This document shows, in pieces, positions 136 through 17,958 of a stretch of 33,122 bases of DNA. The translations under genes were made by a program, and so were the position numbers. Source of the stretch: Prolixibacteraceae bacterium (GTDB lineage Bacteria > Bacteroidota > Bacteroidia > Bacteroidales > Prolixibacteraceae). The notes below the pieces were generated by a model, which had not been told where the DNA came from, ran no database searches, and saw nothing but the letters and a program-made list of their open reading frames with translations. Numbering within the stretch: position 1 is the stretch's first letter; the number at the start of each line of letters is the position of its first letter. Location: the NCBI GenBank assembly GCA_009773765.1, contig WTWZ01000052.1, positions 1-33,122 of the forward strand. The letters are read 5' to 3'.

Positions 136-1530
136 ATGCAATTACAACTTAAAATATCAGGAGAGCATTATTCCCTATTAAAAGACCATTTATTCCCTGG
201 GGATGGGAAGGAAGCTGTTGCGATTGCTTTGTGTGGCCGTCATATTAATAAGAATTATCATTGTTTGTACATACACGACATTATATTGATTCCCTATGAG
301 GACTGCTCCATTCGCGAAAAGGATATTATTCGTTGGTCAACTCTTAAAATAATCCCTTTTCTGAAACGCCTATCAAAAGGAGATTTTGGAATTTTAAAAA
401 TTCATTGTCATCCTACTGGAGTAAATGATTTTTCCATACAAGATGATATTTCAGATAAAGAATTTTTCGATTCGGTTTTTGGATGGTCAGATTCAACTTA
501 TCCACATGCTAGTGCAATTATGTTACCCAATGGGAAAATTATTGGCCGATTTGCTTTTGAGGATTTGCATTTTGAACCTATTTCGAAAATATCGATAGCT
601 GGAGACAAAATTGAATTTTTTTATGAAATTGAAAATAAAAACGTCAATCCCGATTTTGCATTTCGGACAATTCAAACTTTTGGAGATGAAACATACAATA
701 AATTGTCGCAGCTTAAAATTGCAATAGTAGGATGTTCTGGCACTGGTAGTCCGGTTATTGAACAACTGGTTCGGTTAGGAGTTGGAGAGTTGGTTCTGAT
801 TGATCCTAATGTTATGGAATTTAAGAATCTAAACCGTATTATTAATTCAAAGTTTTCAGATGCAGAGATGTGTAAGCCTAAAGTTCAGGTGCTAAGTGAA
901 GTAATAAAAACTATTGGTCTTGGGACGAAAGTAAAAACTTTTCAAAAAAATCTTTTTGATGATGTTGAGGTTTTAAAGACAATATTAAGATGTGATATTG
1001 TATTTGGATGTATGGATAGTGTTGACGGGAGATTTTTATTGAATCAGCTTTGCACATTTTATTTATTACCCTATTTCGATATCGGTGTAAAATTAGAAGC
1101 GGATGGAAAAGGAGGAATTAACCAGATTGTTGCATCTGTTCATTATATACAACCGGGTAGGTCATCATTAATTACAAGAGGAATGTTCGACATGGATGAT
1201 GTAAAGGCATCAAGTCAGTATCGAAAATGTCCTGAAGAATTTCTGGAGCTTAAGAAGAATGCATATATAAAAAATATTCGCGTGAATAACCCTGCCGTTA
1301 TAAGCATCAATATGACTGTTGCCAGCCATGCAATTAATGATTTTTTAAATAGAATTCATCCATTTAAAGTGGAATCACCAGGTTCGTATGCATCAAGTAC
1401 AATTGATATTACCGAAGGATATATTATCAATTCCAAAGAGGAGGATTTTGAGATTGATTATTATTTGAAAAAGAAATCTGGTCGTGGTGATATGAGTCCG
1501 TTTATTGAAATGTCAGAATTAAATTTATGA
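136..1530 (+). CDS. JAB (JAMM) isopeptidase fused to ThiF/E1-like adenylyltransferase
   Basis: The 464-residue protein joins two ubiquitin-pathway enzymes. Residues about 1-130 form a JAB/JAMM metalloprotease domain: H90-x-H92-P, S100 and D103 give the full HxHP-x6-SxxD zinc motif, and E26 is a candidate catalytic glutamate. Residues about 180-450 form an E1/ThiF adenylation domain: the nucleotide-binding loop is G199-C-S-G202-T-G204, D223 ends the second strand, and N231-L-N-R234 matches the E1 NxxR signature. The family adenylates the C-terminus of a ubiquitin-like protein, and JAB domains process or remove such proteins. The CxxC pair often seen after 'PG' in ThiF-type E1s is absent here (PGRSSLIT), so zinc binding or thioester chemistry at that spot may be lost. 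The stop overlaps the next start as ATGA, indicating translational coupling to the DUF6527 gene. No E2 or Ubl gene is visible in the window. Confidence 0.85.
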   Translation: MQLQLKISGEHYSLLKDHLFPGDGKEAVAIALCGRHINKNYHCLYIHDIILIPYEDCSIREKDIIRWSTLKIIPFLKRLSKGDFGILKIHCHPTGVNDFSIQDDISDKEFFDSVFGWSDSTYPHASAIMLPNGKIIGRFAFEDLHFEPISKISIAGDKIEFFYEIENKNVNPDFAFRTIQTFGDETYNKLSQLKIAIVGCSGTGSPVIEQLVRLGVGELVLIDPNVMEFKNLNRIINSKFSDAEMCKPKVQVLSEVIKTIGLGTKVKTFQKNLFDDVEVLKTILRCDIVFGCMDSVDGRFLLNQLCTFYLLPYFDIGVKLEADGKGGINQIVASVHYIQPGRSSLITRGMFDMDDVKASSQYRKCPEEFLELKKNAYIKNIRVNNPAVISINMTVASHAINDFLNRIHPFKVESPGSYASSTIDITEGYIINSKEEDFEIDYYLKKKSGRGDMSPFIEMSELNL

Positions 1531-1859
1531 GCTGGTTTAAGAAAATTGCGGATAGGGTTTTTGAATGGCAATCACCAGGACTTCAATTGAGGTATGTTGA
1601 TGAATTACCTGAAATGGTCACTGATAAAGTCATTTATATTGTAGGTGAGATGAAATCCCCTTGGCTTTTAGCATTTAAATGTCCTTGTGGTTGTCAAAAA
1701 TTAATCCAATTAAATCTTCTTAAAGATGCTGACCCATGTTGGAGATTTAAAGTTGATAAGAATAAGAAAATTAATATTTATCCTTCAGTATGGAGAACGA
1801 GTGGATGTAAAAGCCATTTCATAATTCGCAATAGTAAAATTCAGTGGATAAAGTTATAG
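1527..1859 (+). CDS. DUF6527 family protein, putative metal-binding partner of the E1
   Basis: This 110-residue protein starts inside the stop codon of the JAB-E1 gene (ATGA overlap). It carries C52-P-C54-G-C56 and, near the end, W90, C94-K-S-H97-F and W107. These match the DUF6527 pattern of a Cys cluster in the middle and a GCxSHF...W ending, so four or more Cys/His side chains could hold a zinc ion. DUF6527 proteins commonly sit in operons with bacterial E1, E2, JAB and ubiquitin-like genes. Their biochemical role is unknown to me; a substrate adaptor or E3-like role is speculation. There is no signal peptide or membrane segment. Confidence 0.8.
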   Translation: MSWFKKIADRVFEWQSPGLQLRYVDELPEMVTDKVIYIVGEMKSPWLLAFKCPCGCQKLIQLNLLKDADPCWRFKVDKNKKINIYPSVWRTSGCKSHFIIRNSKIQWIKL

Positions 1860-1941
1860 TTCAAAGGAAGACAGTGAGGTATTTAAAATTTCACACTCTT
1901 TTCACTTTTCGTTTTGAAAGGTAAAACTTGAAATATGCAAA

Positions 1942-1973
1942 TTGATTATATTGGAAATGATTGATTAGTTTTG
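1942..1973 (+). promoter_or_regulatory. Predicted promoter of the nucleotidyltransferase gene
   Basis: TTG at 1942-1944 is followed after 21 bases by TAGTTTTG at 1966-1973, an exact TAnnTTTG element at the normal spacing. Transcription would start near 1979. That argues for translation from the ATG at 1989 rather than the in-frame TTG at 1971, which would lie upstream of the transcript. Confidence 0.5.
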
Positions 1974-1988
1974 TCAAATACTGAAATT

Positions 1989-2678
1989 ATGAATATTAAT
2001 CCCAAGGAAACGATGTTTGGCCTCCCCATTTTGAAAGTAAGAGAGATTTTAAGGCAGGCAATTAAAGAAAGGCTATGGGGTAATTCACGTAAAAAAGTAA
2101 TTGGAAAAGTTGCTCTGATTTTAAAACAACCAACCGTAATAGCACAGGAATTGGTGAGTCAATTATTAAATGAAAATTACATTGTCTTGGAAAAAAAGAA
2201 ATTTCAGGATGGGATTCAATATGAATTGATAGCAACCGAAAAGGGACGTCGTTTTGGTATTGCAAAAGCAACCGCTTCAATTTCCAGGGCAAAAGCGAGC
2301 GAATTACTTCAGGATTTGATTGAAAGGGCAAAATCAATAAACGAAAATCCGGAGTTTGTTTTTTTCGTGGAAAGAATAGAGGTATTTGGCAGTTACATAA
2401 CGGATAAAGAATTACTGGGTGATTTGGATGTGGGAGTAAAACTTGACAGAAGGTACAACGGAACGCAATTCACACAACACAATCAGCACCGTATAGAAAT
2501 GGCCAAATCCGGTGGTCGCAGTTTTAATAATTCAACAGATCAACTGAACTGGCCTTATTTGGAAGTAATTTTAATGTTAAAGGCAAGAAAAAGAGGATTA
2601 AGTATTCACGATATTAATGAAGATGAAGTTTTCAGTGTTACTGAAACAAGAGTGGTTTACCAGTTTCCGGGAAATTAA
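1989..2678 (+). CDS. Winged-helix protein with nucleotidyltransferase (NTP_transf_2-like) domain
   Basis: From the ATG at 1989 the protein has 229 residues; an in-frame TTG at 1971 would add six. The N-terminal half, about residues 15-95, is rich in short helices and resembles a winged helix-turn-helix. The C-terminal half has a polymerase-beta type signature, G-S-Y followed by L-G-D-L-D-V (catalytic pair D145 and D147 from this start), with a possible third acid in YLEV (E192). Such proteins transfer nucleotides to proteins, RNA or small molecules; the target cannot be read from the sequence. It lies 129 bases after the DUF6527 gene with its own predicted promoter, so it need not belong to the ubiquitin-like module. 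It is too short and lacks the OAS-like C-terminal part expected of a CBASS CD-NTase. Confidence 0.65.
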   Translation: MNINPKETMFGLPILKVREILRQAIKERLWGNSRKKVIGKVALILKQPTVIAQELVSQLLNENYIVLEKKKFQDGIQYELIATEKGRRFGIAKATASISRAKASELLQDLIERAKSINENPEFVFFVERIEVFGSYITDKELLGDLDVGVKLDRRYNGTQFTQHNQHRIEMAKSGGRSFNNSTDQLNWPYLEVILMLKARKRGLSIHDINEDEVFSVTETRVVYQFPGN

Positions 2679-2885
2679 TATTATCACTTTACTATTTTCT
2701 TGAATTGTAATGAATCATTCCGGAAAGCGATTTGATTATGTTTCACTCGGGATAAAACACTAATCAATCCCTATGATAAAAGAAAGCAAAGTCGTTTTGA
2801 GAAATCTGCTATCAGAAATAATGATTAGTGCTATATTTACCAAACAAACAGGAAATCAACTTCAAGACTAAAAAAGATTACTATT

Positions 2886-4412
2886 TTGAAGAAGCTAAAA
2901 CTATTCATATCAAGTGTCCAAAATGAGTTTGCCAAAGAACGGGCTGAATTGGCAAGCTATTTCAGACAAGATACTTTGCTTGGAACTTTCTTTGAACCTT
3001 TTATTTTTGAGGAAGTTCCTGCTAATACACATGCTCCGGGCAAGGTATATTTGGCTGAGGTGAAAGATTCGGATATTTATATTGGATTATTGGGTGCATC
3101 TTATGGTTTCGAGGATGAAATGGGAGTTTCGCCAACTGAACGGGAATATGATCGGGCAAAAACGGAACACATACCCAGATGGATTTTTATAAAGAATATT
3201 GCCGGAGCTGAGCGGCATCCAAAAGAAGCTGAATTAATCCGAAAAATTGAACAAGATGTTTCCAGAAAAAAGTTTTCAGATGTTGATTCTCTTAAAAAGG
3301 AAGTTTATAATTCATCTGTTCTGTATTTAAAGCAAATAGGAAAAATTGAAAGCCACGATTTTGATGATTCGCTGCATTCCACTGCTGATATACAATCACT
3401 GGATGAAACTAAAGTAAAGGAATTTGTTATTATCGCCAGAGAAAAACGCAACTTCCCGTTAAAAGAAACTGCATCAGTTGAACAGGTGTTGAAACATTTG
3501 CGAATGATTAGAAATGGAAAGATTGTTAATAGTGCGTTACTGGCTTTTGCCCCTGATCCACAATTGTATTTTCCATCAGCTACGATTAAATGTGCTCATT
3601 TTCATGGGTTACAAGTGCAAAAACCGATTCCTGATTACAAAGAGTTTGGTGGAACTGTATTTGAGGTAGCGGACGAGGCTGTAAATTTTGTTCTTTCCAA
3701 AATAAGCTTGTCAACCGGTACCCGGGAAAAAAGTAATCAGGTTGAGACCATTTACGAAATTCCCCGTGCTGTTATTTCTGAAGCAATCATTAACGCAGTA
3801 GCACACCGTGATTATTACAGCAAAGGCAGCATACAATTGTCGGTTTTCAGGGATCGGATTGAAGTAACTAATCCTGGCAGTTTACCTCCAGAGTTGGATA
3901 TTAATGATTTGAAAGAACCTCATAGTTCATATCCCCATAATCCGTTGCTTGCGGGATGTATGTTTTTAACCGGTGAGATTGAACGTTATGGTACCGGAAC
4001 TGTTGAAATGTTTAAACTAACAAAAGAAAGAGGATTAAAGCCACCACTTATTACTCTTGATGAAGGTTTTAAGTTAACGATTTGGAGGCCTTCAGCCGAT
4101 ACCGAACATGATACCGAACATGATACCGAACATGATACCGAACATGATGTTTCTGTTGAATTTTCGGAAATAGCTGAACTAACTCATCGTTTGGTATTGG
4201 TTTTAAATGGTGAAATGAGCCGGCCACAATTAATGGCTATTCTGGAATTAAAAAGCAGGCCTCATTTTGTTATATATTACCTTGAGCCTGCTTTGAAAGA
4301 GGATTTAATTGAAATGACCCTGCCAGACAAGTCAACCAGCAAAAATCAGAAATACAGATTAACTCAAAAAGGATTGAAATTGAAAAAGAATCTGATAAGT
4401 AAAAATAATTGA
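2886..4412 (+). CDS. DUF4062-AlbA_2-HATPase_c_4-winged helix protein
   Basis: The 508-residue protein starts at TTG (2886); no in-frame ATG lies near. Residues 4-100 form a DUF4062 domain (LFISSVQNEF, then YIGLLGASYG), a TIR/nucleosidase-like fold found in STAND and other conflict proteins. Residues about 185-260 resemble the AlbA_2/Schlafen DNA-binding fold (REKRNFPL ... FPSATIKC). Residues about 290-400 resemble HATPase_c_4: E-x3-NAVAHRDY, then YGTGT. A linker of four DTEH repeats (405-420) leads to a C-terminal winged helix. The family is usually annotated as RecG-like or transcriptional-regulator ATP-binding proteins. Its stop lies 21 bases before the Wadjet-like jetA start on the same strand, so it may be the first gene of that operon as a sensor, regulator or accessory effector; this is inferred from position only. 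Confidence 0.75.
   Translation: MKKLKLFISSVQNEFAKERAELASYFRQDTLLGTFFEPFIFEEVPANTHAPGKVYLAEVKDSDIYIGLLGASYGFEDEMGVSPTEREYDRAKTEHIPRWIFIKNIAGAERHPKEAELIRKIEQDVSRKKFSDVDSLKKEVYNSSVLYLKQIGKIESHDFDDSLHSTADIQSLDETKVKEFVIIAREKRNFPLKETASVEQVLKHLRMIRNGKIVNSALLAFAPDPQLYFPSATIKCAHFHGLQVQKPIPDYKEFGGTVFEVADEAVNFVLSKISLSTGTREKSNQVETIYEIPRAVISEAIINAVAHRDYYSKGSIQLSVFRDRIEVTNPGSLPPELDINDLKEPHSSYPHNPLLAGCMFLTGEIERYGTGTVEMFKLTKERGLKPPLITLDEGFKLTIWRPSADTEHDTEHDTEHDTEHDVSVEFSEIAELTHRLVLVLNGEMSRPQLMAILELKSRPHFVIYYLEPALKEDLIEMTLPDKSTSKNQKYRLTQKGLKLKKNLISKNN
4098..4145 (+). repeat. Four perfect 12-base in-frame tandem repeats (DTEH)4
   Basis: The unit GATACCGAACAT occurs four times without a mismatch and encodes D-T-E-H four times in the linker between the HATPase-like and winged-helix domains of the DUF4062 protein. 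The unit is a multiple of three, so copy-number change by slippage would lengthen or shorten the linker without a frameshift. Confidence 0.97.
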
Positions 4413-4433
4413 CTCAGAGCAAAATAACTGAAC

Positions 4434-5654
4434 TTGGCCAAATTTGAAAAAATAGAAAACTTACTGGGAGAACTTTACAATCACAGGAATCTGTTTGCCG
4501 CATTGTTTGACAAAAGGATGTTTCCCATACAGGAAGAGATGGTTTTGCCACTGGTTGAACACGACACTGAAAAATTAGAACGGCTTGCTGCTTTTGATCT
4601 TCTTTTTCGAAACCAGTCACAAATTAGCCTCGAATCCCGCTTGCAGGAATTCTTTGAGGAATTTCTGGAAGTGGACGAGACCGTACATGTTTTATATATA
4701 CAGGAAAACCTGAACCAGATTAAAATAAATCAATCTTATTATTTAAAAGAGAATCAGGCTATTAAAAGGGATCAGTACCTGATCAGGATAAAGAAACATT
4801 TACGGAGGATTACCCAAATTACATTGCAAAATGTAAAAACACTGCGAAACAATACGGATGAAACCTATAAAACAGAAACAAATTTTGAAATAAAGAAAGA
4901 GAAACTTACCAATCTCCGAAGTCAGCGTGATGAGTTGGAGGGAGTTATCAAAGCAGTGGATCGGTTATTATTGGATGATCTGTTTTTTAAAACTGCGGTA
5001 GATGCTGAGCTGCTGATAATTGTCCATAGATTGCGTTTGGCTTTAAATGAGAGTATTCATAACCTCATTGAAATACAACAACAGATTATAGAATACCTTA
5101 ACCACATTGAAAAGCGGGTTCAGATAGTTGAGAAAGTGTTCAGGTTGAAAATGCTCAGGGACAAACATTATCTGAAAGAAAGGACTAACTTTTACCAGGT
5201 TGTCAATTCCATTCAGGACCTTCCTATGAGAAAAACAGAAGGATTCAGGACCCGGCTATCAATAAATGATATACTAAATGATGAAGTAAAACGAAACATG
5301 GTTTTAAAGGTTCGGGGTAAATTAAGAAATCAAAAATTAATTGCTTTAAATACTGCAGGCGATATTCCCGAGGATGCATTTCTCAGCCAGGAACAATTTG
5401 AAGAAGTCGCGAACCTTCACGCACTGAAACGGATTTTCATGGGAAAGAACCAGGATTTATTTACGTTCATCCTTCATCACCAATTCCGTAACGAAGTTTC
5501 AGTTGAAAACAGAATCAGGTTGTTTTGCAAATTGGCTTCTCTATTCGAAACCGAATTCGTGTTTTCAGATGAAACAGGAAAATTTGAAAACCTGGAATAT
5601 GCCATGATTTATCCTGGAGTAACTGCCGAACAGCATTTTACTCAGGTAAATTAA
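4434..5654 (+). CDS. jetA: Wadjet-like JetA / MksF (MukF-like kleisin)
   Basis: This 406-residue protein opens the condensin block. The start is TTG at 4434: an in-frame TAA lies at 4425-4427 and the next Met is residue 29. It is largely alpha-helical. An N-terminal helical winged-helix part (about 1-110) is followed by a long helical region (about 125-260, with lysine/glutamate-rich coiled-coil segments) and a second winged-helix-like part (about 300-390). That is the layout of MukF-type kleisins, which bridge the SMC heads. The assignment rests mainly on gene order, since kleisin sequences diverge fast: JetB-like, SMC and Toprim genes follow directly. The family partner forms a dimer holding two SMC dimers together. 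It is shorter than many JetA proteins (about 450-500 residues). Confidence 0.7.
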   Translation: MAKFEKIENLLGELYNHRNLFAALFDKRMFPIQEEMVLPLVEHDTEKLERLAAFDLLFRNQSQISLESRLQEFFEEFLEVDETVHVLYIQENLNQIKINQSYYLKENQAIKRDQYLIRIKKHLRRITQITLQNVKTLRNNTDETYKTETNFEIKKEKLTNLRSQRDELEGVIKAVDRLLLDDLFFKTAVDAELLIIVHRLRLALNESIHNLIEIQQQIIEYLNHIEKRVQIVEKVFRLKMLRDKHYLKERTNFYQVVNSIQDLPMRKTEGFRTRLSINDILNDEVKRNMVLKVRGKLRNQKLIALNTAGDIPEDAFLSQEQFEEVANLHALKRIFMGKNQDLFTFILHHQFRNEVSVENRIRLFCKLASLFETEFVFSDETGKFENLEYAMIYPGVTAEQHFTQVN

Positions 5655-5672
5655 ACTTAAACACATTAAAAA

Positions 5673-6257
5673 ATGCCAAATAACAATTATCGTACAGCCG
5701 AAATATTCGACATTCTTAGCAAAGGACAATTTATATGCTCCAATGCCATCGATTCGCAACGTCGTCATTTGTATCAACATATTGAAGAGAATTTTGATGA
5801 ACTGGAACCCAAATTCAGGGAAATTGGTTATCAACTTGAGAATGGGAACAATTATTATTATTTCTCACGGACCAATGAAAGTAACCAAAATGTCGAAGGT
5901 AAAATTGAAAAAGCGCTACGGTGGCTGGATATACTGGCATTTTTTACAACTTTCAGAAAAGATTTATGCAGGGGTGCACGCTTTCAGCCGTATGATATTC
6001 TGAAGCAAATAGAAATTAATTTGTCTCTGAAAGAGCAATTGGCTGATTTACAGAAACGAATAAATCCCGGGAAAAATTACCAGGAAATGCTCAGTGATTT
6101 GATTAAAGAGATTCAGAAAGAAGGTTTTATTGATCTCGAAAATGAGATGGAACAGACATGGAAAATCCTGGATTCGTGGGATTATATGGAAAAACTTGTC
6201 ATGGCAGTAAATATTCAGGATGTGGAAACCTTAACCCAACCGGAGAAAATAAACTAA
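5673..6257 (+). CDS. jetB: Wadjet-like JetB / MksE (MukE-like)
   Basis: The 194-residue protein begins with ATG 18 bases after jetA stops and ends one base before the SMC start. It is small, acidic-basic mixed and helical with two likely winged-helix units, as in MukE/MksE, which bind the kleisin and DNA. The part around residues 75-95 (IEKALRWLDILAFF) and the helical second half resemble MksE proteins annotated in Bacteroidota. Identification depends on position between a kleisin-like and a MukB-like gene. It should bind JetA and help load or retain DNA in the SMC ring. Confidence 0.72.
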   Translation: MPNNNYRTAEIFDILSKGQFICSNAIDSQRRHLYQHIEENFDELEPKFREIGYQLENGNNYYYFSRTNESNQNVEGKIEKALRWLDILAFFTTFRKDLCRGARFQPYDILKQIEINLSLKEQLADLQKRINPGKNYQEMLSDLIKEIQKEGFIDLENEMEQTWKILDSWDYMEKLVMAVNIQDVETLTQPEKIN

Positions 6258-6258
6258 A

Positions 6259-8757
6259 ATGAACCAACTAAAGCGTATTATACTAATCAATAGCGGGAAA
6301 GTCGATTTTTATGAACTTTTGCTTGACGGGAACATTCATTTTATAGGAACCCAAGGCACAGGCAAAAGCACAATTCTCAGGGCTATTTTATTTTTTTACA
6401 ATGCCGATGCGCGCAAACTGGGTATTTCAAAAGAAAAGGAACCTTTTAGTGAATACTATTTTCCTTATGCTGATTCTTATATTGTTTATGAAGTAAGCCA
6501 GGAAAGCCGAAATTTTTGTGTCTGGTTGTACAAAAAACAAAATCGTTTGTGTTTTCGCTTTGTTGATGGACCTTATGAGCGTCATCTTTTTATAGATAAA
6601 CTACAGGCCAGATTAGAGAATCAGGTAATTGAAAATGCCAATAAACAAGGATATAAGGTTCATCGTCCGATATACAATTTTTCGGAATACCGGGATATAA
6701 TTTATGGTGCAAATAAAAGCATGAATCGGTTCAATATCCTGCAAAACTCAAGCTACCATAATATTCCGAGAACCATCACCAATGTTTTTCTTAATTCCTC
6801 GCTTGATGGGGGATTTATCAAAACAACCATTATTAATTCATTAAGCGATGACCCTTTTGAGATAAATCTGGATAAAAACAGACATCATTTAGAAACTGCA
6901 CGTAACGATTATCGTGATGTTTCAGAATATCTTCTTCACGAAAAAAAGGCACAAAACATTGTTTCTATTTTTAATGGGCTACTTAAAATGGAAGAAGATA
7001 AAAAAGAACTTGCATGGAAAATCGGAGCTGCATTTAATTATTCACGAGAGAAGGAACGCACATTGCAGGATGAACAAATTGCTATAAACCAGCAGTTTGC
7101 CGACCAGCAAATTAAAATCGAAAAAATTAACCTGGAATTTTCAACAGATCAGCGCAGGGTGCAGGACAAATTGGCCATTGTGAAACAGGATATTCTTAAA
7201 GCCAACCAAAAGGGAAAAGAATATGCTTCAAAAAACATTGATCAATTGTTGATAGAACATGCCGCAAAACCTGATTATGAACGTGAACAGTCTCAAATTA
7301 AAGCTCAACTTGCATTGCTTACAGCGAATCAACAAGATATTGAAACTCGTTATCAGACTGACAAACAACGGTTGGAGACACAATGCCAACAGCAAATTTT
7401 GGATTTTGAATTGTCGCTGGCCAAAGAAAAAGAAAAATTGCAACAGGATTCAACCTATATAGCAACTGCATTTTATCAGGAAAAGGAAAGACTTTTATTG
7501 GACCAAAACAAGAAACTTGAAGAACAAACCAGCGAAAAAATAACTATTGATAAAAAAATAAGGGAAGTTGAATTCAGCATTGAGAGTATTCAGAAAACTC
7601 CTTTCTTAAAAGAAGAAAAAGATAAACTGAAAAATGATCAACGCGAACTTTCAGAGAAAAAGCAAAGACTTACTTCTCAGGAATCCCATGCCAGACTTCA
7701 AAAAGAAAGTACGGTGAAAGAAGGGGAAAAAGAAAAGGAACTTTTGGAACTTAAAAGCAATCAGGAAAATGAAAAGCTTTTAATCAAGAAAAAAACATTG
7801 GAAATGGAAATCAGCCAGTTACAAGCTGATTTGCAAGCTTTATCAGGTTCATTGTTGGAATTCCTGGAGCAAAATAAACCTGATTGGAATAATTCAATAG
7901 GGAAAGTGGTTTCAAGGGAAGTCCTACTGCAAAATGATTTACAACCTTCAATTTCTGACGGCAGAGACTTATATGGTTTGTACCTTGATTTGGGGCAACT
8001 TCAGCCTGTGCAGTTATCAAAAACCGGATTGGAAATTAAACTAAGTAAATTAACTGATGAACTAAAGGAACTGAACAATCTGATTCAGCAAAATCTGCAG
8101 GAAATTCATGACCAGAAGGATAAGCTTCAAAAGAAATACAATAAGAAAATTATAGAGCTTACACAGGAGATAAAAGAGTGTGAATACCAGCTTGAAAAAA
8201 CGGGTATTGATATTGAAAGATGCAGGATAGACCTGGCTGAACTGAATGCAAGGTCTGAAAATATGAAGCTGCGGGAAATCGATGAAAAAGAGAAGGAAAA
8301 ACATAACCTGAAAGCTGAACTTTATAAAATATTGGAATTCATAAGGCAAATAAAACAACGCCATCAGAATTCGATTGATGAGTTGGAATCCAGAAAACGC
8401 ACGCAGGAGAAGAAGGTAAAAAATCTGTTGACGGAGTTGACTGAAAAAATAGAATCCAATAAAAAATCAATTACTGAAAAATTCAATACTCAGATAAAAG
8501 TACTGGAAGAAAGCCGAAACACTTTGCTAAAAGAGAAAGGAGTTGATACTTCGGAGATTCAAAAGCTGGAAAGCCAGCTTGAAATTGTAAAAGGTAAATT
8601 GGAAGCCATCGGGAAAAATAACCGGTTGATTATCGAATACAACAAAGATCGGGAAGAATATATTGATCGTTTGGAAGATTTTAGGCAAAATCGTAAAAAT
8701 CTGGAGAACGAATTGGAACACCTTCAGCAGCGACATTCCATCAGGATAAACAAATAG
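6259..8757 (+). CDS. jetC: Wadjet-like JetC (MukB/MksB-type SMC), N-terminal portion ending at an in-frame TAG
   Basis: The 832 residues before the stop hold the N-terminal ATPase half of an SMC protein. The Walker A motif is G30-T-Q-G-T-G-K36-S37. After the head (about 1-230) comes a long Glu/Lys/Gln-rich coiled coil, then a small MukB-like hinge (about 530-595; FLEQNKPDW, GKVVSREVL, LYLDLGQLQP), then the returning coil. The frame stops at TAG (8755-8757) inside that second coil, so this product lacks the Walker B and signature motifs and cannot form a complete ATPase site by itself. Family members are about 1,100-1,200 residues; the interrupted frame totals 1,204 codons, the expected size. 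The gene starts one base after jetB. Wadjet SMC complexes extrude DNA loops and license cleavage of small circular DNA such as plasmids. Confidence 0.85.
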   Translation: MNQLKRIILINSGKVDFYELLLDGNIHFIGTQGTGKSTILRAILFFYNADARKLGISKEKEPFSEYYFPYADSYIVYEVSQESRNFCVWLYKKQNRLCFRFVDGPYERHLFIDKLQARLENQVIENANKQGYKVHRPIYNFSEYRDIIYGANKSMNRFNILQNSSYHNIPRTITNVFLNSSLDGGFIKTTIINSLSDDPFEINLDKNRHHLETARNDYRDVSEYLLHEKKAQNIVSIFNGLLKMEEDKKELAWKIGAAFNYSREKERTLQDEQIAINQQFADQQIKIEKINLEFSTDQRRVQDKLAIVKQDILKANQKGKEYASKNIDQLLIEHAAKPDYEREQSQIKAQLALLTANQQDIETRYQTDKQRLETQCQQQILDFELSLAKEKEKLQQDSTYIATAFYQEKERLLLDQNKKLEEQTSEKITIDKKIREVEFSIESIQKTPFLKEEKDKLKNDQRELSEKKQRLTSQESHARLQKESTVKEGEKEKELLELKSNQENEKLLIKKKTLEMEISQLQADLQALSGSLLEFLEQNKPDWNNSIGKVVSREVLLQNDLQPSISDGRDLYGLYLDLGQLQPVQLSKTGLEIKLSKLTDELKELNNLIQQNLQEIHDQKDKLQKKYNKKIIELTQEIKECEYQLEKTGIDIERCRIDLAELNARSENMKLREIDEKEKEKHNLKAELYKILEFIRQIKQRHQNSIDELESRKRTQEKKVKNLLTELTEKIESNKKSITEKFNTQIKVLEESRNTLLKEKGVDTSEIQKLESQLEIVKGKLEAIGKNNRLIIEYNKDREEYIDRLEDFRQNRKNLENELEHLQQRHSIRINK
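8755..8757 (+). other. jetC: Premature in-frame TAG stop in jetC
   Basis: TAG is codon 833 of a frame that stays open from 6259 to 9873 with no other stop. Both sides keep the coiled-coil composition: residues just after the TAG read KTELQELKNQQDK. A C-to-T change in a Gln CAG codon would explain it with one base. TAG terminates other genes here (the DUF6527 gene, the T9SS plug gene and the GH2 gene), so general reassignment of TAG is unlikely. Confidence 0.95.
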
Positions 8758-9873
8758 AAAACAGAACTGCAGGAATTAAAGAATCAACAGGATAAAGTTT
8801 CAAAAGATCTTATTGAAACAAGGCGCCAGTTATCAACTTATGACCGGTTTTGCAAAAGCCAGTTGTTTATCGAACTTCAAAACTTTGTACAACACCACGA
8901 TAAGGAAAGTCAGTGGAATTGTGATGAGTTAATTGAAAAACTGCAAAATCTGGCATTTGAATATGAAAAGACCGATAAGTCTTTCACAGAGAAGATAACG
9001 GAATTTTCGGGGTATTTTTCACCTGACAATTGTCTGGGTTTTGAGATTAATTTGTCAGGATATTTTCAATACCATGCATTTGCCAATAACTTAAAAGAGT
9101 TTGTAAGGGAACAAAAGATTATCGACTTTAAAACGGAAGTAACACGAAAATATGCCATGGTACTAACCAATATCGTGAATGAAACCAATGAATTGCTTCA
9201 AAAGGAAGAATATGTGCAGAAGATAATCCAGCGTATAAATGTTGATTTCAAAAAATCAAATTTTGTTGGTGTTGTAAAAAGTATTGAAATGCGCCTTCAG
9301 GAAAGTACCGATAAAATTATTCAGCTTCTCCGCAGAATACGAAAGTTTCAGAAGGATAATAACCTGAATTATGGAGAGATCAATTTATTCAACCAGGGTG
9401 GTACCAACAGGAACAACGATGAAGCCGTAACCCTGTTGGAAAATTTACTGACCCAAATTGGACAGGCAAAATCAAAGGTATTGAAGTTGGAAGATGCGTT
9501 TGAACTTGAATTCAGAATACGTGAGAATGAAAATGACACGAACTGGGTTAGCCGGTTGGCCAATGTCGGTTCAAACGGAACCGATGTTTTAGTCAAATCG
9601 ATGATCTACATTAACCTGCTGCACATTTTCAAAAGCAATGGTACCAAACAAAAATCAGATACCATTTTGCATTGCCTGATTGACGAGGTTGGAATTTTGC
9701 ACGACAGCAATGTCCGTGGCCTTATTTCATTTGCCAGCGAACGCAATATCCGGTTAGTAAATGGTTCGCCAAATTCTCATAACGAACAGGATTACAGGCA
9801 TATTTATATGTTTCGAAAAGATCCGAAATCAAACAAAACCGGAATCACAAAACTGATCAGCCATGAACTCTAA
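8758..9873 (+). CDS. jetC: Wadjet-like JetC, C-terminal portion (same frame after the TAG)
   Basis: This continues the jetC frame for 371 codons after the TAG. It finishes the coiled coil and supplies the C-terminal ATPase half. An ABC-type signature is visible at codons 1104-1108 of the full frame (GSNGT, followed by K), and the Walker B is CLID1142-E1143 with the SMC glutamate. An NGSPN segment follows, like the switch region of MukB-type ATPases. The first possible restart is a TTG at 8863 and the first in-frame ATG is near 9157; neither has an obvious ribosome site. Unless read through, re-initiated or corrected, the gene is split. The end overlaps jetD by 11 bases. Confidence 0.8.
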   Translation, partial: KTELQELKNQQDKVSKDLIETRRQLSTYDRFCKSQLFIELQNFVQHHDKESQWNCDELIEKLQNLAFEYEKTDKSFTEKITEFSGYFSPDNCLGFEINLSGYFQYHAFANNLKEFVREQKIIDFKTEVTRKYAMVLTNIVNETNELLQKEEYVQKIIQRINVDFKKSNFVGVVKSIEMRLQESTDKIIQLLRRIRKFQKDNNLNYGEINLFNQGGTNRNNDEAVTLLENLLTQIGQAKSKVLKLEDAFELEFRIRENENDTNWVSRLANVGSNGTDVLVKSMIYINLLHIFKSNGTKQKSDTILHCLIDEVGILHDSNVRGLISFASERNIRLVNGSPNSHNEQDYRHIYMFRKDPKSNKTGITKLISHEL

Positions 9874-10726
9874 ACCTTTGTCACTGTCGTTTGCCCGATG
9901 CCTGCTTCGGTTACAAAATGGGGAAATGCTGAACTTCAGTGAAATAGCTTCAAAGGAACTGTTAAAACAATTTTGTGATGATGGTATTTTTCAAAAGCTA
10001 CCGGCAGGAGGAAGACGGGTAAATTATGTTTGCACTGAACCAATGTCATTGCACAATTATTTGAAGGCTCAATTCGACATTATTTCACTGAAAAATTATG
10101 TCAGCGAATTTGAAACAGATTTATCTGACGGAGAACGCTCATTGTTTGCCTCCAAATCGACAAAAACTTTTAGGGGAAAGAGTTTGCAGGGTTTTTTTAT
10201 AAGAGCCTTCCATACAGAAATTGTCGTTTCCGGGATCACAATTCGGTCAGTTCCACAGGGTACTGAATTATTTATCCATCAGCCTGAAAAACTGGTAATT
10301 TCACATAATGCATTAGTTATTGGTATTGAAAACCCGGAATGCTTTTTAAAGTTCGAAAAACTGGTTCATCTTTTCCCTCAAAAAGAGCTGGTTATCATTA
10401 TGCGATATTTGAGCAACAGTCCCAACAAATGGCTTCAGACAATTACAAATAGCTACCTGCATTTTGGAGATTTTGATCCTGCAGGTTTGCATATTTACAT
10501 TCGCGAGTACCGAAACCAGTTGCCTGCATCCAGGTGCAGTTTTTTTATTCCAGCGAACATTGAGAAATTGATAGATCGATATGGCATACCAACCCTTTAT
10601 GACCAGCAAATTCATTTATTAAAGAATATTGATTTTCAACTGTATCCCGAAGTGGAAGGACTGATGCGTCTCCTCAAAAAACATCGAAAAGGCCTGGAAC
10701 AGGAACGACTACTGACACATGTTTAA
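9863..10726 (+). CDS. jetD: Wadjet-like JetD / MksG, Toprim nuclease subunit
   Basis: The 287-residue protein starts inside the end of jetC. The N-terminal 130 residues are helical and winged-helix-like. The C-terminal part is a Toprim domain: a strand ending in the conserved glutamate (IGIE156NPE), then HFGD203-F-D205-PAG, the DxD metal pair. In Wadjet and MksBEFG, this topoisomerase VI-A-like subunit makes the double-strand cut in the circular DNA once the SMC motor stalls. It is shorter than the usual 350-400 residue JetD, and the motif reads GDFDPAG where better-known JetD proteins have GDIDxxG, so this is a divergent branch. It is the last gene of the block and meets a minus-strand nuclease gene tail to tail after 35 bases. 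Confidence 0.78.
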   Translation: MNSKPLSLSFARCLLRLQNGEMLNFSEIASKELLKQFCDDGIFQKLPAGGRRVNYVCTEPMSLHNYLKAQFDIISLKNYVSEFETDLSDGERSLFASKSTKTFRGKSLQGFFIRAFHTEIVVSGITIRSVPQGTELFIHQPEKLVISHNALVIGIENPECFLKFEKLVHLFPQKELVIIMRYLSNSPNKWLQTITNSYLHFGDFDPAGLHIYIREYRNQLPASRCSFFIPANIEKLIDRYGIPTLYDQQIHLLKNIDFQLYPEVEGLMRLLKKHRKGLEQERLLTHV

Positions 10727-10761
10727 CCAATAATTCAGATGATTTTCTGTTGGCAAAAAGT

Positions 10762-11394
10762 TTACACGTTCTCAAAAAACTGAACGGCAAAATCACAAAA
10801 TGTAATGATGGTTTCCTTATCCAAATCAAATTCCTTACGACTGCCAAGGTAATTTCTGCTTTCCGGCGTAATTTCTTTACCGTCTTTTAATTCTTTGTAG
10901 TTTATGCATTTAATATGTTTTTTTGAAACAAGGATAAAAAAAGCATTTTCCCATGCATAATCTTTTGGTAAGTCCTTTATTGTAAATGTTCCGCTGGCTC
11001 TGAATTTAACCTCAATAAAAAATACTTCTCCAGAGCGTGGATTTTGTACCACAAAGTCAGGCATTCTCTTAATTTCTTCAGCTACTTCCGATTTTATTCC
11101 TTTTAAAAGTTCCATGATACCCGGAATTGTATTTTCCATTCCGTACCTGAACACATTGTATTTCAGTGTTAGAAACAATTCCTGAACAAGTGTTTCTGCA
11201 ATACGCCCCTTTATCATATTGTACCTGTAATTCCACTCTTTTTCTGATATTCCGTTGGAATTTAGTCCGGTGTCCTGTTTTTCGGTGGGTAAGTTCTTTT
11301 TACCGGAAGGGTTCTTATTGCCACCTTTGTAACACGAAAGGCATAAACCTCCTTCAAATTTGGTGTAATCACCACAAATTATACAGTCAGGCAT
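10762..11394 (-). CDS. Zinc-ribbon PD-(D/E)XK nuclease-like protein
   Basis: The 210-residue protein has an N-terminal zinc ribbon (C4-x2-C7 ... C18-x2-C21), a polar linker rich in Lys, Asn and Ser (24-52), and a C-terminal domain with a PD-(D/E)XK layout: E67 in the first helix (GRIAETLV), P112-D113 opening a strand (MPDFVV), and E128-V-K130 in the next (FFIEVKFR). These residues would bind the metal for phosphodiester cleavage. It is the third gene of a minus-strand set, 40 bases after the DUF2971 gene and downstream of a restriction-methylase. It may be an accessory nuclease of that system or a separate effector. No named family was recognised with certainty. Confidence 0.7.
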   Translation of the reverse strand: MPDCIICGDYTKFEGGLCLSCYKGGNKNPSGKKNLPTEKQDTGLNSNGISEKEWNYRYNMIKGRIAETLVQELFLTLKYNVFRYGMENTIPGIMELLKGIKSEVAEEIKRMPDFVVQNPRSGEVFFIEVKFRASGTFTIKDLPKDYAWENAFFILVSKKHIKCINYKELKDGKEITPESRNYLGSRKEFDLDKETIITFCDFAVQFFENV

Positions 11395-11434
11395 AATTGA
11401 TTTATTTGTTGTTATTTAGAAGATAATTAATTGC

Positions 11435-12148
11435 TTAATTTATACATTTTCCATCCCAAATATCAGGTATCCTGTATTCTTTATTTCGGTTATAAGTAAA
11501 TGACATTTTACCTAATTGGAAAGAATATATTGAAAGATACATTTTTGAAATAATAAGATTTTCATAACGATTATTGATAATGTCAAGAACTAAATTAATA
11601 TCCATTCTTGAAGTCTGACTACCAAATATTATCTCAATAAGTTTTCCGGGATAATTTTCATAAACCTTTTTTTCCATGAAAACCTGCCTAAATTCTTTTT
11701 CATACTGCCATTCAATTGATTTTGTTTTTACGATTTTAATAAGTTGAGCCCAGTTATCAGCATTATTAACGTCAAAATAAGCGCTTGGTATTTCTTCGCT
11801 ATATTCAACTTTAACAAAGCCAAATTTAAGATTCTCTTTTGGGATTTCAAATACCAGACACATTCCTTTATGGCTGTCAGCATAATGTGACCACATTAAT
11901 TTACTATCATCAAATGAGCTATAGCATACGACCCCAAAATTTGATATGAGTTTTTTAATTTTCTCTCTATTCTCATATCTTTCAACATGACTAAGCTTAA
12001 TTTCCTTTTGTTTATTTGACAACACTTCTTCTTTCAAATGAAATTCAAATGGGTCATTAAATTCTAAAGGGTCGGCAACCCAATTTTTTTGAATCGATAA
12101 ATTAGTTAAAGTTAATTTGTTAATTGGTTGGTAACGATATAAATGCAT
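11435..12148 (-). CDS. DUF2971 family protein
   Basis: From the ATG at 12148 the protein has 237 residues; a TTG at 12157 would add three. I prefer the ATG because GGAG lies just before it. It matches DUF2971: a start with YRYQPI, then W..DPLEFNDPFEF, and in the middle VVCYSS...LMWSHYADSHKGMCLVFE. The family is common in bacterial defence and abortive-infection loci; its biochemical activity is not established to my knowledge. It lies 39 bases downstream of the restriction-methylase stop and upstream of the zinc-ribbon nuclease, all minus strand, so the three are likely co-transcribed. No signal peptide or membrane segment is seen. Confidence 0.85.
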   Translation of the reverse strand: MHLYRYQPINKLTLTNLSIQKNWVADPLEFNDPFEFHLKEEVLSNKQKEIKLSHVERYENREKIKKLISNFGVVCYSSFDDSKLMWSHYADSHKGMCLVFEIPKENLKFGFVKVEYSEEIPSAYFDVNNADNWAQLIKIVKTKSIEWQYEKEFRQVFMEKKVYENYPGKLIEIIFGSQTSRMDINLVLDIINNRYENLIISKMYLSIYSFQLGKMSFTYNRNKEYRIPDIWDGKCIN

Positions 12149-12187
12149 AATCTCCAAAATTCTAAATTGCCTTATTATTTTAAAATT

Positions 12188-15100
12188 TCATTTTATACTT
12201 CCCTCCACAATCCCAACCTCCTCTTCGGTCAATCCATACAATTCATAAACCATTCTGTCTATTTCACGGTCAGTTTTGTCGATTTCGGCTTTCAGGGTTT
12301 GGGCTTTTTGTTTTTGTCCGGTGAAATAGTCTTCCCATTCGGCTTCATCCGAAAGGCTTAATTTTATTCGCTTTTTCGCGAGTTCCTTAATGTATTCCGG
12401 ATATGAAAGCAAATACCATTCCTGCAATTTAACCGACAAATCTTCAAGGTTAAATTTACGCTGAACTGTGCGCGTAAATTTTAAAACAATGTTTTGTAAA
12501 TCACTTGTCAGACTGGTACGTTCTGAAGCACATTTTGCGAGTATTGCCGTTTGTTCATCGTTCGCTTTCGGCACCGGAAAATGTTCAAAATAAACTTTTC
12601 TGATTTCGCGTGTTCCACCCTGAAGTTCAGGACAGTTGTACCAAATCCAGAGTTTTGCAAGCGAAGAATTTAAAACAGCAGTCAAAAAAAGCAGCGAAAC
12701 TGAATTGTCTTTTGCAGTCAGAATAAAGCTTTTCTGATTTGCTAAAATTCCACTTTCATCGTACATGAACGGAGAAAATGCAGTTATTTCCGGATAGAGG
12801 ATTTTTGGTTTGGAAAACTCTTCAAAATAGTTGATGCTATCCTGAGTTTCGAACCATTTTCCATTTGTTTTTTTCCGCGCGCCGGTTTCTCCGGTTTGTT
12901 TTAAACGGTCATAACCAAATGATAACAAATGATTTTTTATTGCTGGATAATTATCAATTTCAAGTTTTAAAGCTGGAAAAGTACCTACCAAATATTCAAA
13001 ACCGGTAATTCCATAAGCTGAAATATCTCTTCCCCGAACCATCGGTTTTATCAGTTCATTACTTTTGGGGTCGGCCGTAATCAGCATGTTTCGGGTTGCT
13101 TCATCAATATAAAAGGCATCATTAAAACCGGTAAGAATGCCCCGATAAATTAAAACTGGCAAATCCTTTAGTTCAATGCCATTCAGTTTCATTTTCTCCA
13201 GCTTTATTGAGTCGAGATAAGGCTGGATGCTCCATTCAGCATCGCTGAATTTTGACGAAGGATAATTGTAAGTGCTGTTTTTAACTTCTGTAAGAAAATC
13301 GCCGGAATAGGTTTTTTTGTTGAGCGACAAGACTTCTACACTTTCTAATGGCTGGCTGTTTTGCGTAACAAAAATGCAAACATAAGTAGTTGCTTCCTCA
13401 AAAAACTGAATATCACCAAAATTCAGAATTTGGCGCAACCCAGTTTTCGACAAAAATTTCCGCAATGGTTTACCATATTCCACGAGCATCCATTTATTGG
13501 GCATAATAAACGATTGCAGACCACCGGGTTTTAAAAGCTTGAATCCTCTTTCAATAAAAATGCAATACAGGTCAGCGCCTTTGTCAAAAGTTACGAAGCC
13601 GCATTTTGAAAGTTTGTCGCTCATTTCACCCATCGACTGGAGCTGCACATACGGCGGATTTCCAATCACCACATCAAAACCACCTTTGGCAAACACTTCG
13701 GGGAATTCGGTGGACCAGTGAAATGCTTTTTCACCGGCAATTGCCGTGTCGTCAATCAGCGAGTTGCCGCATTTAATATTGTTGCTCAGCGAGGTGAGTT
13801 TCCGCCCTTTTTGTGCGGTGCGCAGCCACAGCGAGAGTTTGGCAATTTCAATGGATTCTTCGTTAATGTCAACCCCGTAAATGTTGTTTTCAAGGATACT
13901 GTTTTCCACTTCGGTAAAAACCATCGGCACCTCCAGCAGTTTGGCCCGCAGCTCGTCGATGGTCCGGTGTTCGCGAATCAGAAAATCGAGCGCCTGGTTT
14001 AAAAACGCCCCCGAACCACAAGCCGGGTCGCAAATCGTCAGCGTTAACATCCAGTTGCGGTAGCTGGTCAATTTGTCGTCAAGCTCTTTCAGCTTTTTGG
14101 TGGTGCGTCCTTTCCGGCTTTTCTGGTATTCGCTTTCGTCAATTTCTAGTTCCGCTTTCTTATCGCTGCAAAGTTTGCCCACCGTGTTTTCAACAATGTA
14201 TTTGGTTATGTATTTCGGCGTGTAAAAAACACCGTCCTTTTTGCGTTTGCTTTTCTTCAGGTCAATTTCGGCCCCTTCAATCTGGGCTGCTACTTCCTCA
14301 ATTTCGTTCAGACTGTTTTCGAAAATATGGCCCAGAATGTTTACATCCACCTCCGATTCAAAATCGTAACCGGTCAGCGTTTTTGTGTGTTTGTAAAGCA
14401 TTTCGTCGCTGATGGTAACTGCATCGAGTATTTCGTCAGGCAAAAACAATCCGCCGTTGTAGGCAAAAATCTCGTACTTTTTACCTTTCCAGCCGTCGTT
14501 CATGTACCCAAAATACTTTTTAAAACGGTCGTACAGCGGTTTGTATTCGTCGAGTTCTTTTAACTGTTCCCACTGTGTCAGGATTTCGCTGATGGAGTTG
14601 GGCGGCAGCAAACCGCGGTCTTCGCCAAAAAGAATAAACAGAAATCGGTCAATCAGTTTTTGTGATTTCTTGAAAAGCAAGAGTTTGATTTCCTTTTCAT
14701 CCTTGCCGCTGAAAATCTCTGCAACGGAGCATGCTCCATTGTAGAGATTGTTCTGGATTAAATCGTTATACAAATCGCGTTTAAAAGCTGAGTAGTCGGT
14801 ATAAATTTTCCGGGTTACATCTTCCTCTTTTACAACCGATTCGTTTTTAATAGCCAGCGGAATTCCCCTTAAAAGGTTCTCTCTTGCCAGGCACAACCAC
14901 ATCAGTTGAAATTGTTCGGAATTCAGCCTGAAAAGGTCGAACTCCTCAAAATCAACTGCATTGTTGATGTAAAACCTTACTTTTTCGAAGTTCGAGGTAA
15001 TTACATAAACACAGTTTTTCTGGTTGGCTTTATAATCGAACGCCTGTAAACGAATGGATTCGAGGTCTTTTGTAGTTGTAGATTTTAACTCGATAACCCC

Positions 15101-15394
15101 GATTGCAGCACCTTCTTTCAGAATTGCGCCATCGGCTTTTCTGGCACCTTTTTCGTTTTTAAATTCACGGGTGAGGTTAAAGTCGGGGTTGGGTTTTAGT
15201 GTGAAACCAAAAACATTCACAAACAGGGCAGTCAGAAATCCATCCTGGTATTCTTCTTCTTTACATTCGCGTATATTTTGCTGAATAACACAATTGTGAA
15301 AGTACCCGGCGAACTTCTCGAAAGCCGGTTTCATTGCTGGCTGGTCTGCCTCTTTGAGGTATTTTTTTAATACCGATTGCTGAAATAATCCCAT
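12188..15394 (-). CDS. Type IIG-like restriction endonuclease-methyltransferase (Eco57I class)
   Basis: The 1,068-residue protein combines cutting, methylation and recognition in one chain. An N-terminal PD-(D/E)XK nuclease is marked by KAD88GA and IE102-L-K104. A helical connector leads to an N6-adenine methyltransferase with motif I D456-PACGSG (S-adenosylmethionine binding) and motif IV N579-P-P-Y582. The region after about 720 is a TaqI/Eco57I-type target-recognition part, followed by C-terminal helices. The long form without separate S or R genes fits type IIG enzymes that modify an adenine and cut at a fixed distance. It is the first gene of a minus-strand trio with DUF2971 and a nuclease, and its upstream region is shared with the divergent abiEi. 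The middle of the gene (about 13,700-14,300) looks richer in G+C than its neighbours, a possible sign of transfer. Confidence 0.88.
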   Translation of the reverse strand: MGLFQQSVLKKYLKEADQPAMKPAFEKFAGYFHNCVIQQNIRECKEEEYQDGFLTALFVNVFGFTLKPNPDFNLTREFKNEKGARKADGAILKEGAAIGVIELKSTTTKDLESIRLQAFDYKANQKNCVYVITSNFEKVRFYINNAVDFEEFDLFRLNSEQFQLMWLCLARENLLRGIPLAIKNESVVKEEDVTRKIYTDYSAFKRDLYNDLIQNNLYNGACSVAEIFSGKDEKEIKLLLFKKSQKLIDRFLFILFGEDRGLLPPNSISEILTQWEQLKELDEYKPLYDRFKKYFGYMNDGWKGKKYEIFAYNGGLFLPDEILDAVTISDEMLYKHTKTLTGYDFESEVDVNILGHIFENSLNEIEEVAAQIEGAEIDLKKSKRKKDGVFYTPKYITKYIVENTVGKLCSDKKAELEIDESEYQKSRKGRTTKKLKELDDKLTSYRNWMLTLTICDPACGSGAFLNQALDFLIREHRTIDELRAKLLEVPMVFTEVENSILENNIYGVDINEESIEIAKLSLWLRTAQKGRKLTSLSNNIKCGNSLIDDTAIAGEKAFHWSTEFPEVFAKGGFDVVIGNPPYVQLQSMGEMSDKLSKCGFVTFDKGADLYCIFIERGFKLLKPGGLQSFIMPNKWMLVEYGKPLRKFLSKTGLRQILNFGDIQFFEEATTYVCIFVTQNSQPLESVEVLSLNKKTYSGDFLTEVKNSTYNYPSSKFSDAEWSIQPYLDSIKLEKMKLNGIELKDLPVLIYRGILTGFNDAFYIDEATRNMLITADPKSNELIKPMVRGRDISAYGITGFEYLVGTFPALKLEIDNYPAIKNHLLSFGYDRLKQTGETGARKKTNGKWFETQDSINYFEEFSKPKILYPEITAFSPFMYDESGILANQKSFILTAKDNSVSLLFLTAVLNSSLAKLWIWYNCPELQGGTREIRKVYFEHFPVPKANDEQTAILAKCASERTSLTSDLQNIVLKFTRTVQRKFNLEDLSVKLQEWYLLSYPEYIKELAKKRIKLSLSDEAEWEDYFTGQKQKAQTLKAEIDKTDREIDRMVYELYGLTEEEVGIVEGSIK

Positions 15395-15540
15395 ATCTAC
15401 GGGTCAGGTTAGTACTGTTTAAAATTTTGATGCTAAAATTATAGTATTCTGATTGATAATCGAATTTTTGGACCGAAGTATTTAGCAGAATAAGGAATTT
15501 TTGTTGTGAAAAAAAGTAAGTGAAGAATAGTAACATTAAA

Positions 15541-15570
15541 TTTGATAGTTTATATTATTTAGTATATTTG
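15541..15570 (+). promoter_or_regulatory. Predicted abiE promoter (TTTG-N18-TATATTTG)
   Basis: TTTG at 15541-15544 and TATATTTG at 15563-15570 match the -33 and -7 elements with 18 bases between. The -7 element ends only four bases before the ATG at 15575, so transcription probably starts at or beside the start codon. Confidence 0.65.
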
Positions 15571-17943: not shown

Positions 17944-17958
17944 TTATTTAAATAAATG

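What the first reader, a model, noticed from the sequence alone, without database searches (positions are those of the whole stretch)
6259..9873. Wadjet-like SMC gene jetC interrupted by a single in-frame TAG
The frame from 6259 to 9873 holds 1,204 codons, the size expected for a JetC/MksB SMC, with Walker A in the first part and signature plus Walker B after the stop. Codon 833 is TAG, in the returning coiled coil, and it is the only stop. One C-to-T change in a Gln codon would cause it. A split here removes the second half of the ATPase, so the system is either newly inactivated, read through, made as two chains, or a sequencing error. TAG ends other genes in the window, so code reassignment is unlikely.
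Basis: seen in the sequence. Interest (0 to 1): 0.8.

Follow-up and report, generated by a model that had tools for sequence, protein, structure and literature searches.

The report
Broken motor gene in anti-plasmid operon
A marine bacterium carries a four-gene, probably anti-plasmid operon whose DNA-motor gene is cut by one stop codon, most likely a recent natural knock-out; other broken copies turn up in relatives, so it is informative but not extraordinary.

Summary
In detail: frame 6259-9873 is one SMC-type gene (DUF3584, JetC/MksB-like) with a single in-frame TAG at codon 833 (8755-8757). It sits in a Wadjet-like operon jetA-jetB(MksE)-jetC-jetD(DUF7281, Toprim-like) of a Draconibacterium genome. 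Six of six close relatives have a sense codon there and no gene boundary; five of the six are one open frame of 1,204 codons, and the sixth, D. orientale FH5T, has its own frameshift elsewhere. TAG is an ordinary stop here: prfA is present, none of the 40 tRNA genes found reads it, and 4 of 25 window genes end in TAG. No readthrough structure and no good restart were found. The part after the stop is still conserved (1 of 56 invariant columns changed), so the break looks young. Of 35 JetC copies not cut by a contig end, 5 are broken, by different lesions. Best reading: recent nonsense inactivation of the motor, leaving this copy unable to restrict plasmids, while a second, distant, open copy remains in the same genome. 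A base error in the assembly is not excluded. Broken MksB/JetC genes are already in print, so this is a new instance of a known kind.

The parts
4434..5654 (+). jetA/mksF-like gene (406 aa, TTG start as listed), presumed kleisin; open
   Evidence: Same place in the operon in the relatives whose stretch reaches it; no usable Pfam, NCBIfam or PDB match; predicted model too poor to tell
5673..6257 (+). jetB/mksE gene (194 aa), open
   Evidence: Pfam MksE PF21980 E 1.4e-38
6259..8757 (+). jetC N-terminal part (832 aa): Walker A, outgoing coil, presumed hinge, most of the returning coil; ends at the TAG
   Evidence: DUF3584 12-828, E 4e-59; PADLOC JetC1 over residues 1-44 only, E 2.3e-05
8755..8757 (+). 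in-frame TAG, codon 833
8758..9873 (+). jetC C-terminal part (371 codons): rest of the returning coil, signature-like motif, Walker B-like motif; not expected to be translated
   Evidence: DUF3584 967-1178, E 2.4e-11; up to 82% identity to open relatives; first in-frame ATG only at 9157
9863..10726 (+). jetD/mksG-like gene (287 aa), Toprim-like with a GDFD motif, open; overlaps the end of jetC
   Evidence: DUF7281 E 3.3e-10, JetD_C E 0.004 below cut-off; PADLOC JetD1 E 2.7e-4; invariant E156 and G202-D203-F204-D205 in 10 sequences
2886..4412 (+). DUF4062 / HATPase_c_4 / Fic-like_C gene just upstream of jetA; goes with the operon in part of the clade, membership in the system not shown
   Evidence: found upstream of jetA in L015, L016, L017 and L068, not in L018 or L070

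Best explanation
This is a Wadjet-like (JetABCD / MksFEBG) operon whose SMC motor gene jetC was recently inactivated by a nonsense mutation. By published models of Wadjet, JetABC extrudes DNA loops and on small circles triggers the JetD nuclease. Inferred here: the ribosome stops at codon 833 and makes an 832-residue chain with Walker A but without signature and Walker B, so no complete ATPase head can form, JetD is not activated, and this copy no longer restricts plasmids. Shown: gene order, the lone stop, open relatives, ordinary use of TAG, conservation after the stop. Inferred: that translation ends there, loss of activity, recency, and that the open form was anti-plasmid at all. A second, distant and open jetABCD set elsewhere in the genome could still defend the cell.
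For: Lone TAG in an otherwise complete frame. Five of six close relatives have the whole gene as one frame of 1,204 codons; all six have Glu at the column. The window's jetA, jetB and jetD are open. TAG is a normal stop here: 4 of 25 window genes, prfA present, none of the 40 tRNA genes found has CTA. No unusual RNA fold after the stop (z -0.55), no promoter or terminator signal beyond shuffles, first in-frame ATG 133 codons downstream. Conserved columns after the stop are kept: 1 of 56 changed, against 0 of 55 in each of L015, L070 and L018, 2 of 57 in L072 and 9 of 64 in L019. Damage to this gene recurs: 5 of 35 copies not cut by a contig end are broken, by unrelated lesions, and the same-genus genome G032 holds only an operon remnant. 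In print: all four Jet subunits are needed to suppress plasmid transformation in B. subtilis (PMC10586767, passage); M. [quoted passage not shown]
Against: Raw reads were not available and no second genome of the same species was held, so the stop rests on one assembly. Faster change after the stop is only a hint: 28 against 16, binomial p 0.096, Fisher against the rest of the operon p 0.10; it is not stable over choices of sister and outgroup (13/13 in one), and the N-terminal head, before the stop, shows a stronger excess (16 against 5, chi-square 5.8). Synonymous sites are saturated in the pairs compared, so the break cannot be dated. The tRNA set found is incomplete (no Ile-GAT or Ala-TGC among the 40), so a missed tRNA is possible. 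No expression or activity data.
Confidence: 0.77

Rival explanations
1. The TAG is a base error in a draft assembly (or a minority allele chosen in a mixed sample) and the living gene is open.
For: Draft of 118 contigs, 1.27% contamination; one base would suffice; the window's other operon genes are open and conserved, and the region after the stop shows almost no decay.
Against: From general knowledge, a substitution error landing as a stop is rarer than the indel errors of poor assemblies; the genome is rated 99.91% complete; breaks in this gene seem common (5 of 35), though those too are seen only in assemblies.
Confidence: 0.15
2. The stop is read through, or the two parts are made as separate chains that assemble into a split SMC, so the system still works.
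For: The part after the stop is conserved (1 of 56 invariant columns changed); split coiled-coil ATPases can assemble in principle (recalled); mksB of P. putida KT2440 'seems to be split' in PMC10123090 (passage).
Against: No suppressor among the 40 tRNA genes found; no unusual structure after the stop; no ATG for 133 codons and a TTG at 8863 without an evident ribosome-binding leader; none of six close relatives is split at this place.
Confidence: 0.05
3. The operon is a long-dead relic.
For: A remnant of a related operon exists in the same genus (G032).
Against: No other stop or frameshift was seen in the four genes; the window's rate is not raised in A (31/36), B (4/13) or D (25/22), and 0 or 1 invariant columns are changed in each.
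Confidence: 0.03

Closest known systems
Wadjet type I / MksBEFG (JetABCD)
   Same: Gene order A-B-C-D, MksE-type JetB, DUF3584/MukB-like SMC of about 1,200 residues, Toprim-like JetD with GDFD
   Different: Sequences are far from the reference models: PADLOC JetC1 matches only the first 44 residues (E 2.3e-05), JetA has no match, JetD is DUF7281, 287 aa, and below the JetD_C cut-off; no solved Jet, Mks or Muk chain was matched by sequence. Here jetC carries a stop.
Broken MksB/JetC genes in print: M. smegmatis mc2 155 EptC and P. putida KT2440 mksB (PMC10123090, passages); spontaneous jetABCD deletion in C. cellulovorans (PMC12287153, abstract)
   Same: Damage to the SMC gene, or loss of the operon, in single strains
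   Different: Here the lesion is one nonsense codon in a draft genome, without a phenotype
MukBEF condensin
   Same: MukB-like SMC architecture
   Different: Here a Toprim-like JetD gene overlaps jetC; MukBEF has none (recalled)

Membership tests
Wadjet (JetABCD) | SMC subunit JetC with Walker A, signature and Walker B in one chain | tested here: not met
   The motifs are in the DNA, but a TAG separates Walker A from the others; one open frame in 5 of 6 close relatives
Wadjet (JetABCD) | JetB (KITE, MksE) | tested here: met
   PF21980 E 1.4e-38, over cut-off
Wadjet (JetABCD) | JetA kleisin | tested here: inconclusive
   No usable family or PDB match; model pLDDT 56; only its place in the operon and its conservation argue for it
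Wadjet (JetABCD) | JetD nuclease with Toprim domain | tested here: inconclusive
   DUF7281 matches 10 of 10 members (best E 2.9e-12), JetD_C 5 of 10 (best 2e-4); invariant Glu and GDFD; model pLDDT 65, no fold match at E 0.001 or below, best hits are winged-helix regulators and ribosomal proteins; no PDB relative by sequence
Wadjet (JetABCD) | Adjacent genes in the order A-B-C-D | tested here: met
Wadjet (JetABCD) | Restricts small circular plasmids | not testable with these tools
   needs a transformation assay
Recoded gene (stop readthrough / reassigned TAG) | tRNA able to read TAG, or loss of RF1 | tested here: not met
   prfA present; 0 of the 40 tRNA genes found with CTA; the set found is incomplete
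Conserved two-gene (split) SMC | split conserved among relatives | tested here: not met
   0 of 6 close relatives split at this place

The most novel reading that the evidence does not exclude
In this Bacteroidota branch of Wadjet the motor gene is repeatedly switched off on its own (nonsense, a slip in an A-run, loss of the N part beside a TnpB-like gene) while jetA, jetB and jetD stay open, as in 4 of the 5 broken operons seen. This could be selection for easily reversible loss of plasmid immunity, a population-level on/off state of the motor rather than simple decay.
Probability: 0.07. Interest if true: 0.6.

Novelty: new member of a known kind. Interest (0 to 1): 0.3.

Why it matters
Wadjet is thought to keep small plasmids out of many bacteria. 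An apparently young, single-codon knock-out with open relatives and an open second copy in the same cell gives a natural pair for asking when and why bacteria give up plasmid immunity. The survey also shows a Wadjet-like branch in Bacteroidota that PADLOC's 2023 models match only weakly.

Tried and rejected
Code reassignment or suppression: rejected. Conserved split gene: rejected. Readthrough structure: z -0.55, 59 of 200 shuffles fold at least as well. Internal promoter near the stop: one minus-strand match against a shuffle mean of 1.0. Dating by dN/dS: failed, synonymous sites saturated; that script stopped with an error, so codons 1001-1204 and three pairs of the stretch after the stop were not computed. 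JetC as preferred place of damage: with JetC hit in 5 operons and JetA in 2 (L102, and L081 = G914), and JetC 57.5% of the operon's length, P(5 or more of 7) = 0.37, so not shown (one search had counted 5 of 6, P 0.20, before I noticed the stops in jetA of G914). Structure models: JetA pLDDT 56 and JetD 65, too poor; the fold search of JetD gave 0 matches at E 0.001 or below. PDB by sequence: one weak coil match for JetC (a peptidase, E 9e-4), none below 0.05 for JetA, JetB or JetD. A Rep_3-type plasmid initiator (PF01051) in the own genome: none; it rang in only 2 of 14 controls, so this says little. DUF7281 in the held library: 0 papers. Draconibacterium with Wadjet: 0 papers. Rows dropped before the JetC count: L073 (weak), L069 and L071 (duplicates of L017 and L018), G139:C554 and G632:C101 (partial matches, not examined), G514 (weak, not examined); then L008, L011, L084 and L104 (contig ends; in L008 and L084 a stop lies within about 100 bases of the contig end, so either could be broken or just misassembled). 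G032 was found with JetA, so it is not in the count. (phylum, 3 of 392 genomes) was drawn evenly and added no usable copy beyond G519, which one search also gave.
Full report
OBSERVATION. Frame 6259-9873 holds 1,204 codons and one internal stop, TAG at codon 833, positions 8755-8757. The part before it (832 aa) matches Pfam DUF3584 over model positions 12-828 (E 4e-59) and the part after it positions 967-1178 (E 2.4e-11). A Walker A-like GTQGTGKST lies at residues 30-38; signature-like and Walker B-like motifs lie after the stop, mostly in columns invariant or nearly so in 12 relatives (motif names recalled).

SETTING. The window is contig C24 of a 4.27 Mb, 118-contig draft rated 99.91% complete and 1.27% contaminated. 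The same-genus genome G006 is Draconibacterium orientale FH5T: its fetched stretch is identical over 9 kb to the named record. The gene lies in an operon: jetA-like 4434-5654, jetB/MksE 5673-6257 (PF21980, E 1.4e-38), jetC, and jetD-like 9863-10726 (DUF7281, E 3.3e-10; JetD_C below cut-off). It sits among other defence-type genes: a ThiF/DUF6527 pair, a DUF4062 gene, a type IIG restriction enzyme and an AbiEi/AbiEii pair, ending near two tRNA genes.

RELATIVES. A search with the C part found matches in 12 of 101 genomes and 14 of 140 family genomes, the own genome included in both. Seven copies form a close clade (74% identity or more to the window over the C part, window included). Of the other six, five are open over all 1,204 codons: G034 and G030 (same genus), Mangrovibacterium lignilyticum, M. 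marinum and Sunxiuqinia dokdonensis. The sixth, D. orientale FH5T, has a sense codon at 833 but a frameshift near codon 322 in a run of A (seven, against six in L015 and L016). All six have Glu at column 833. Three of four more distant sequences have other residues there, as usual in a coiled coil; the fourth, L022, also differs, and L072 has Glu.

IS TAG A STOP HERE? Yes. RF1 (prfA) is present over the cut-off. The 40 tRNA genes found were all read for anticodon and none is CTA; the set is incomplete (no Ile-GAT or Ala-TGC seen), so a missed gene is possible. In the window TAG ends 4 of 25 genes that I took from the ORF list, TAA 17, TGA 4. The 101 bases from the stop onward fold no better than shuffles (z -0.55). 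After the stop the first in-frame ATG is 133 codons away; the TTG at 8863 has no evident leader.

HOW OLD? Synonymous sites are saturated between the window and L015, L016 and L018, the three compared, so dating fails; the script stopped before finishing. With L018 as outgroup and L015 as sister, lineage-specific changes (window/sister) are A 31/36, B 4/13, C before the stop 66/58, C after the stop 28/16, D 25/22. The excess after the stop is not significant (binomial p 0.096; Fisher against the rest p 0.10). With other sisters and outgroups it is 16/7 (L015, L072), 27/16 and 15/7 (L068), 30/16 and 13/13 (L070), so the hint is not stable. It is also not special to the part after the stop: residues 1-215 show 16/5 (chi-square 5.8). 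Columns invariant in ten other sequences and changed in the window: A 1 of 38, B 0 of 23, C before 2 of 71, C after 1 of 56, D 0 of 35; other members taken as focus have 0 to 9 after the stop. The gene seems to have been under constraint until recently.

HOW COMMON ARE BREAKS? I examined 39 JetC copies with the frames of A-D: 37 of the 40 distinct or partial rows and earlier hits as listed under Tried and rejected, plus L072 and L011. Four end at contig edges (L008, L011, L084, L104). Of the 35 others 5 are broken: the window (nonsense), D. orientale (frameshift), G914 (frameshift at a run of eight A), G596:C121 (in-frame TAA near codon 384) and G602 (N part missing, with an ORF in its place that looks by eye like a TnpB transposon protein). 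jetB and jetD are open in all five. jetA is open in four; in G914 it holds two in-frame stops within 85 bases of the contig end, so that operon is damaged twice or misassembled there. One other operon (L102) has a stop inside jetA. Breaks in JetC are not more than its length predicts (5 of 7 lesions, P 0.37). In L093 and L097 no JetD was found beside an open JetC. In the genus, 6 of 37 genomes have a jetA match; of the 7 operon copies in these, 3 are damaged: the window, D. orientale and the remnant in G032, where jetA is frameshifted, jetB reduced to about 44-52 aligned residues and no JetC match found. All these are assemblies; some shifts in A-runs may be sequencing errors.

SECOND COPY. 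The same genome has another jetABCD set on contig C74 (28-40% identity) with all four frames open (A 401, B 205, C 1,229, D 291 codons). Loss of the window copy need not leave the cell undefended.

MECHANISM. From PMC10586767 (passages): JetA/B/C are kleisin, KITE and SMC, JetD holds a Toprim domain, and all four are needed to suppress plasmid transformation in B. subtilis; the model is loop extrusion that activates JetD on small circles. From PMC10123090 (passages): null alleles of mksB, mksF or mksG raise the copy number of plasmid pBHK18, not of pJC1, in C. glutamicum. A chain cut at 833 lacks half of the ATPase head, so I infer no loop extrusion, no JetD activation and no restriction. None of this was measured for this branch.

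COMPARISON. The operon resembles Wadjet type I in gene order and domain content, but as a member it is distant: PADLOC JetC1 matches only at the N-terminus (11 of 12 relatives match the same model, best E 4.4e-08), JetA matches nothing, JetD is DUF7281, and no solved Jet, Mks or Muk chain came up by sequence. Broken MksB/JetC genes are in print: M. smegmatis mc2 155 (spontaneous mutation) and P. putida KT2440 (mksB 'seems to be split') in PMC10123090 (passages), and spontaneous loss of jetABCD, with two other systems, in a C. cellulovorans mutant that takes up plasmids better (PMC12287153, abstract). The finding is therefore a new instance of a known kind.

VERDICT. Real feature at the stated place; most likely a recent nonsense knock-out (0.77), less likely an assembly error (0.15), read-through or two chains (0.05), or an old relic (0.03).

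Noticed in passing
L017 7741-7757 (D. orientale FH5T, same as L069 8459-8475): jetC of a complete, named genome carries a frameshift in a run of seven A near codon 322; either a real slip or a sequencing error.
   Followed up: partly
L081 1-85 and 4099-4157, L083 3207-3209, L082 2312-3508: Three further broken jetC genes of the same order: frameshift at a run of eight A (with two stops in jetA as well), in-frame TAA, and N part missing beside a TnpB-like ORF.
   Followed up: partly
L105 10500-11890: Same-genus genome G032 holds a decayed remnant of a related operon (jetA frameshifted, jetB cut, no JetC found).
   Followed up: partly
window 2886-4412: DUF4062 + HATPase_c_4 + Fic-like_C gene lies directly upstream of jetA in 5 of 7 close-clade copies; possible extra partner or regulator.
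   Followed up: no
L072 4845-5885 and 6591-7427: A Pontiellaceae operon, 61% identical in the JetC C part, has two extra open frames, between jetA and jetB and between jetB and jetC.
   Followed up: no
window 4434-5654 and relatives (A5): The JetA-like family has no usable Pfam, NCBIfam or PDB match; DUF7281 is in no paper of the held library.
   Followed up: partly
L102 7169-8383: In-frame stop near the start of jetA in another operon of this family.
   Followed up: no
L093 and L097: Open jetA-jetB-jetC without a JetD match in the fetched stretch.
   Followed up: no
window 136-17237, tRNAs at 17868-18045: Dense run of defence-type genes (ThiF/DUF6527, Wadjet-like, DUF2971/PDC-S31, type IIG R-M, AbiEi/AbiEii) ending next to tRNA-Pro and tRNA-Ser genes.
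   Followed up: no
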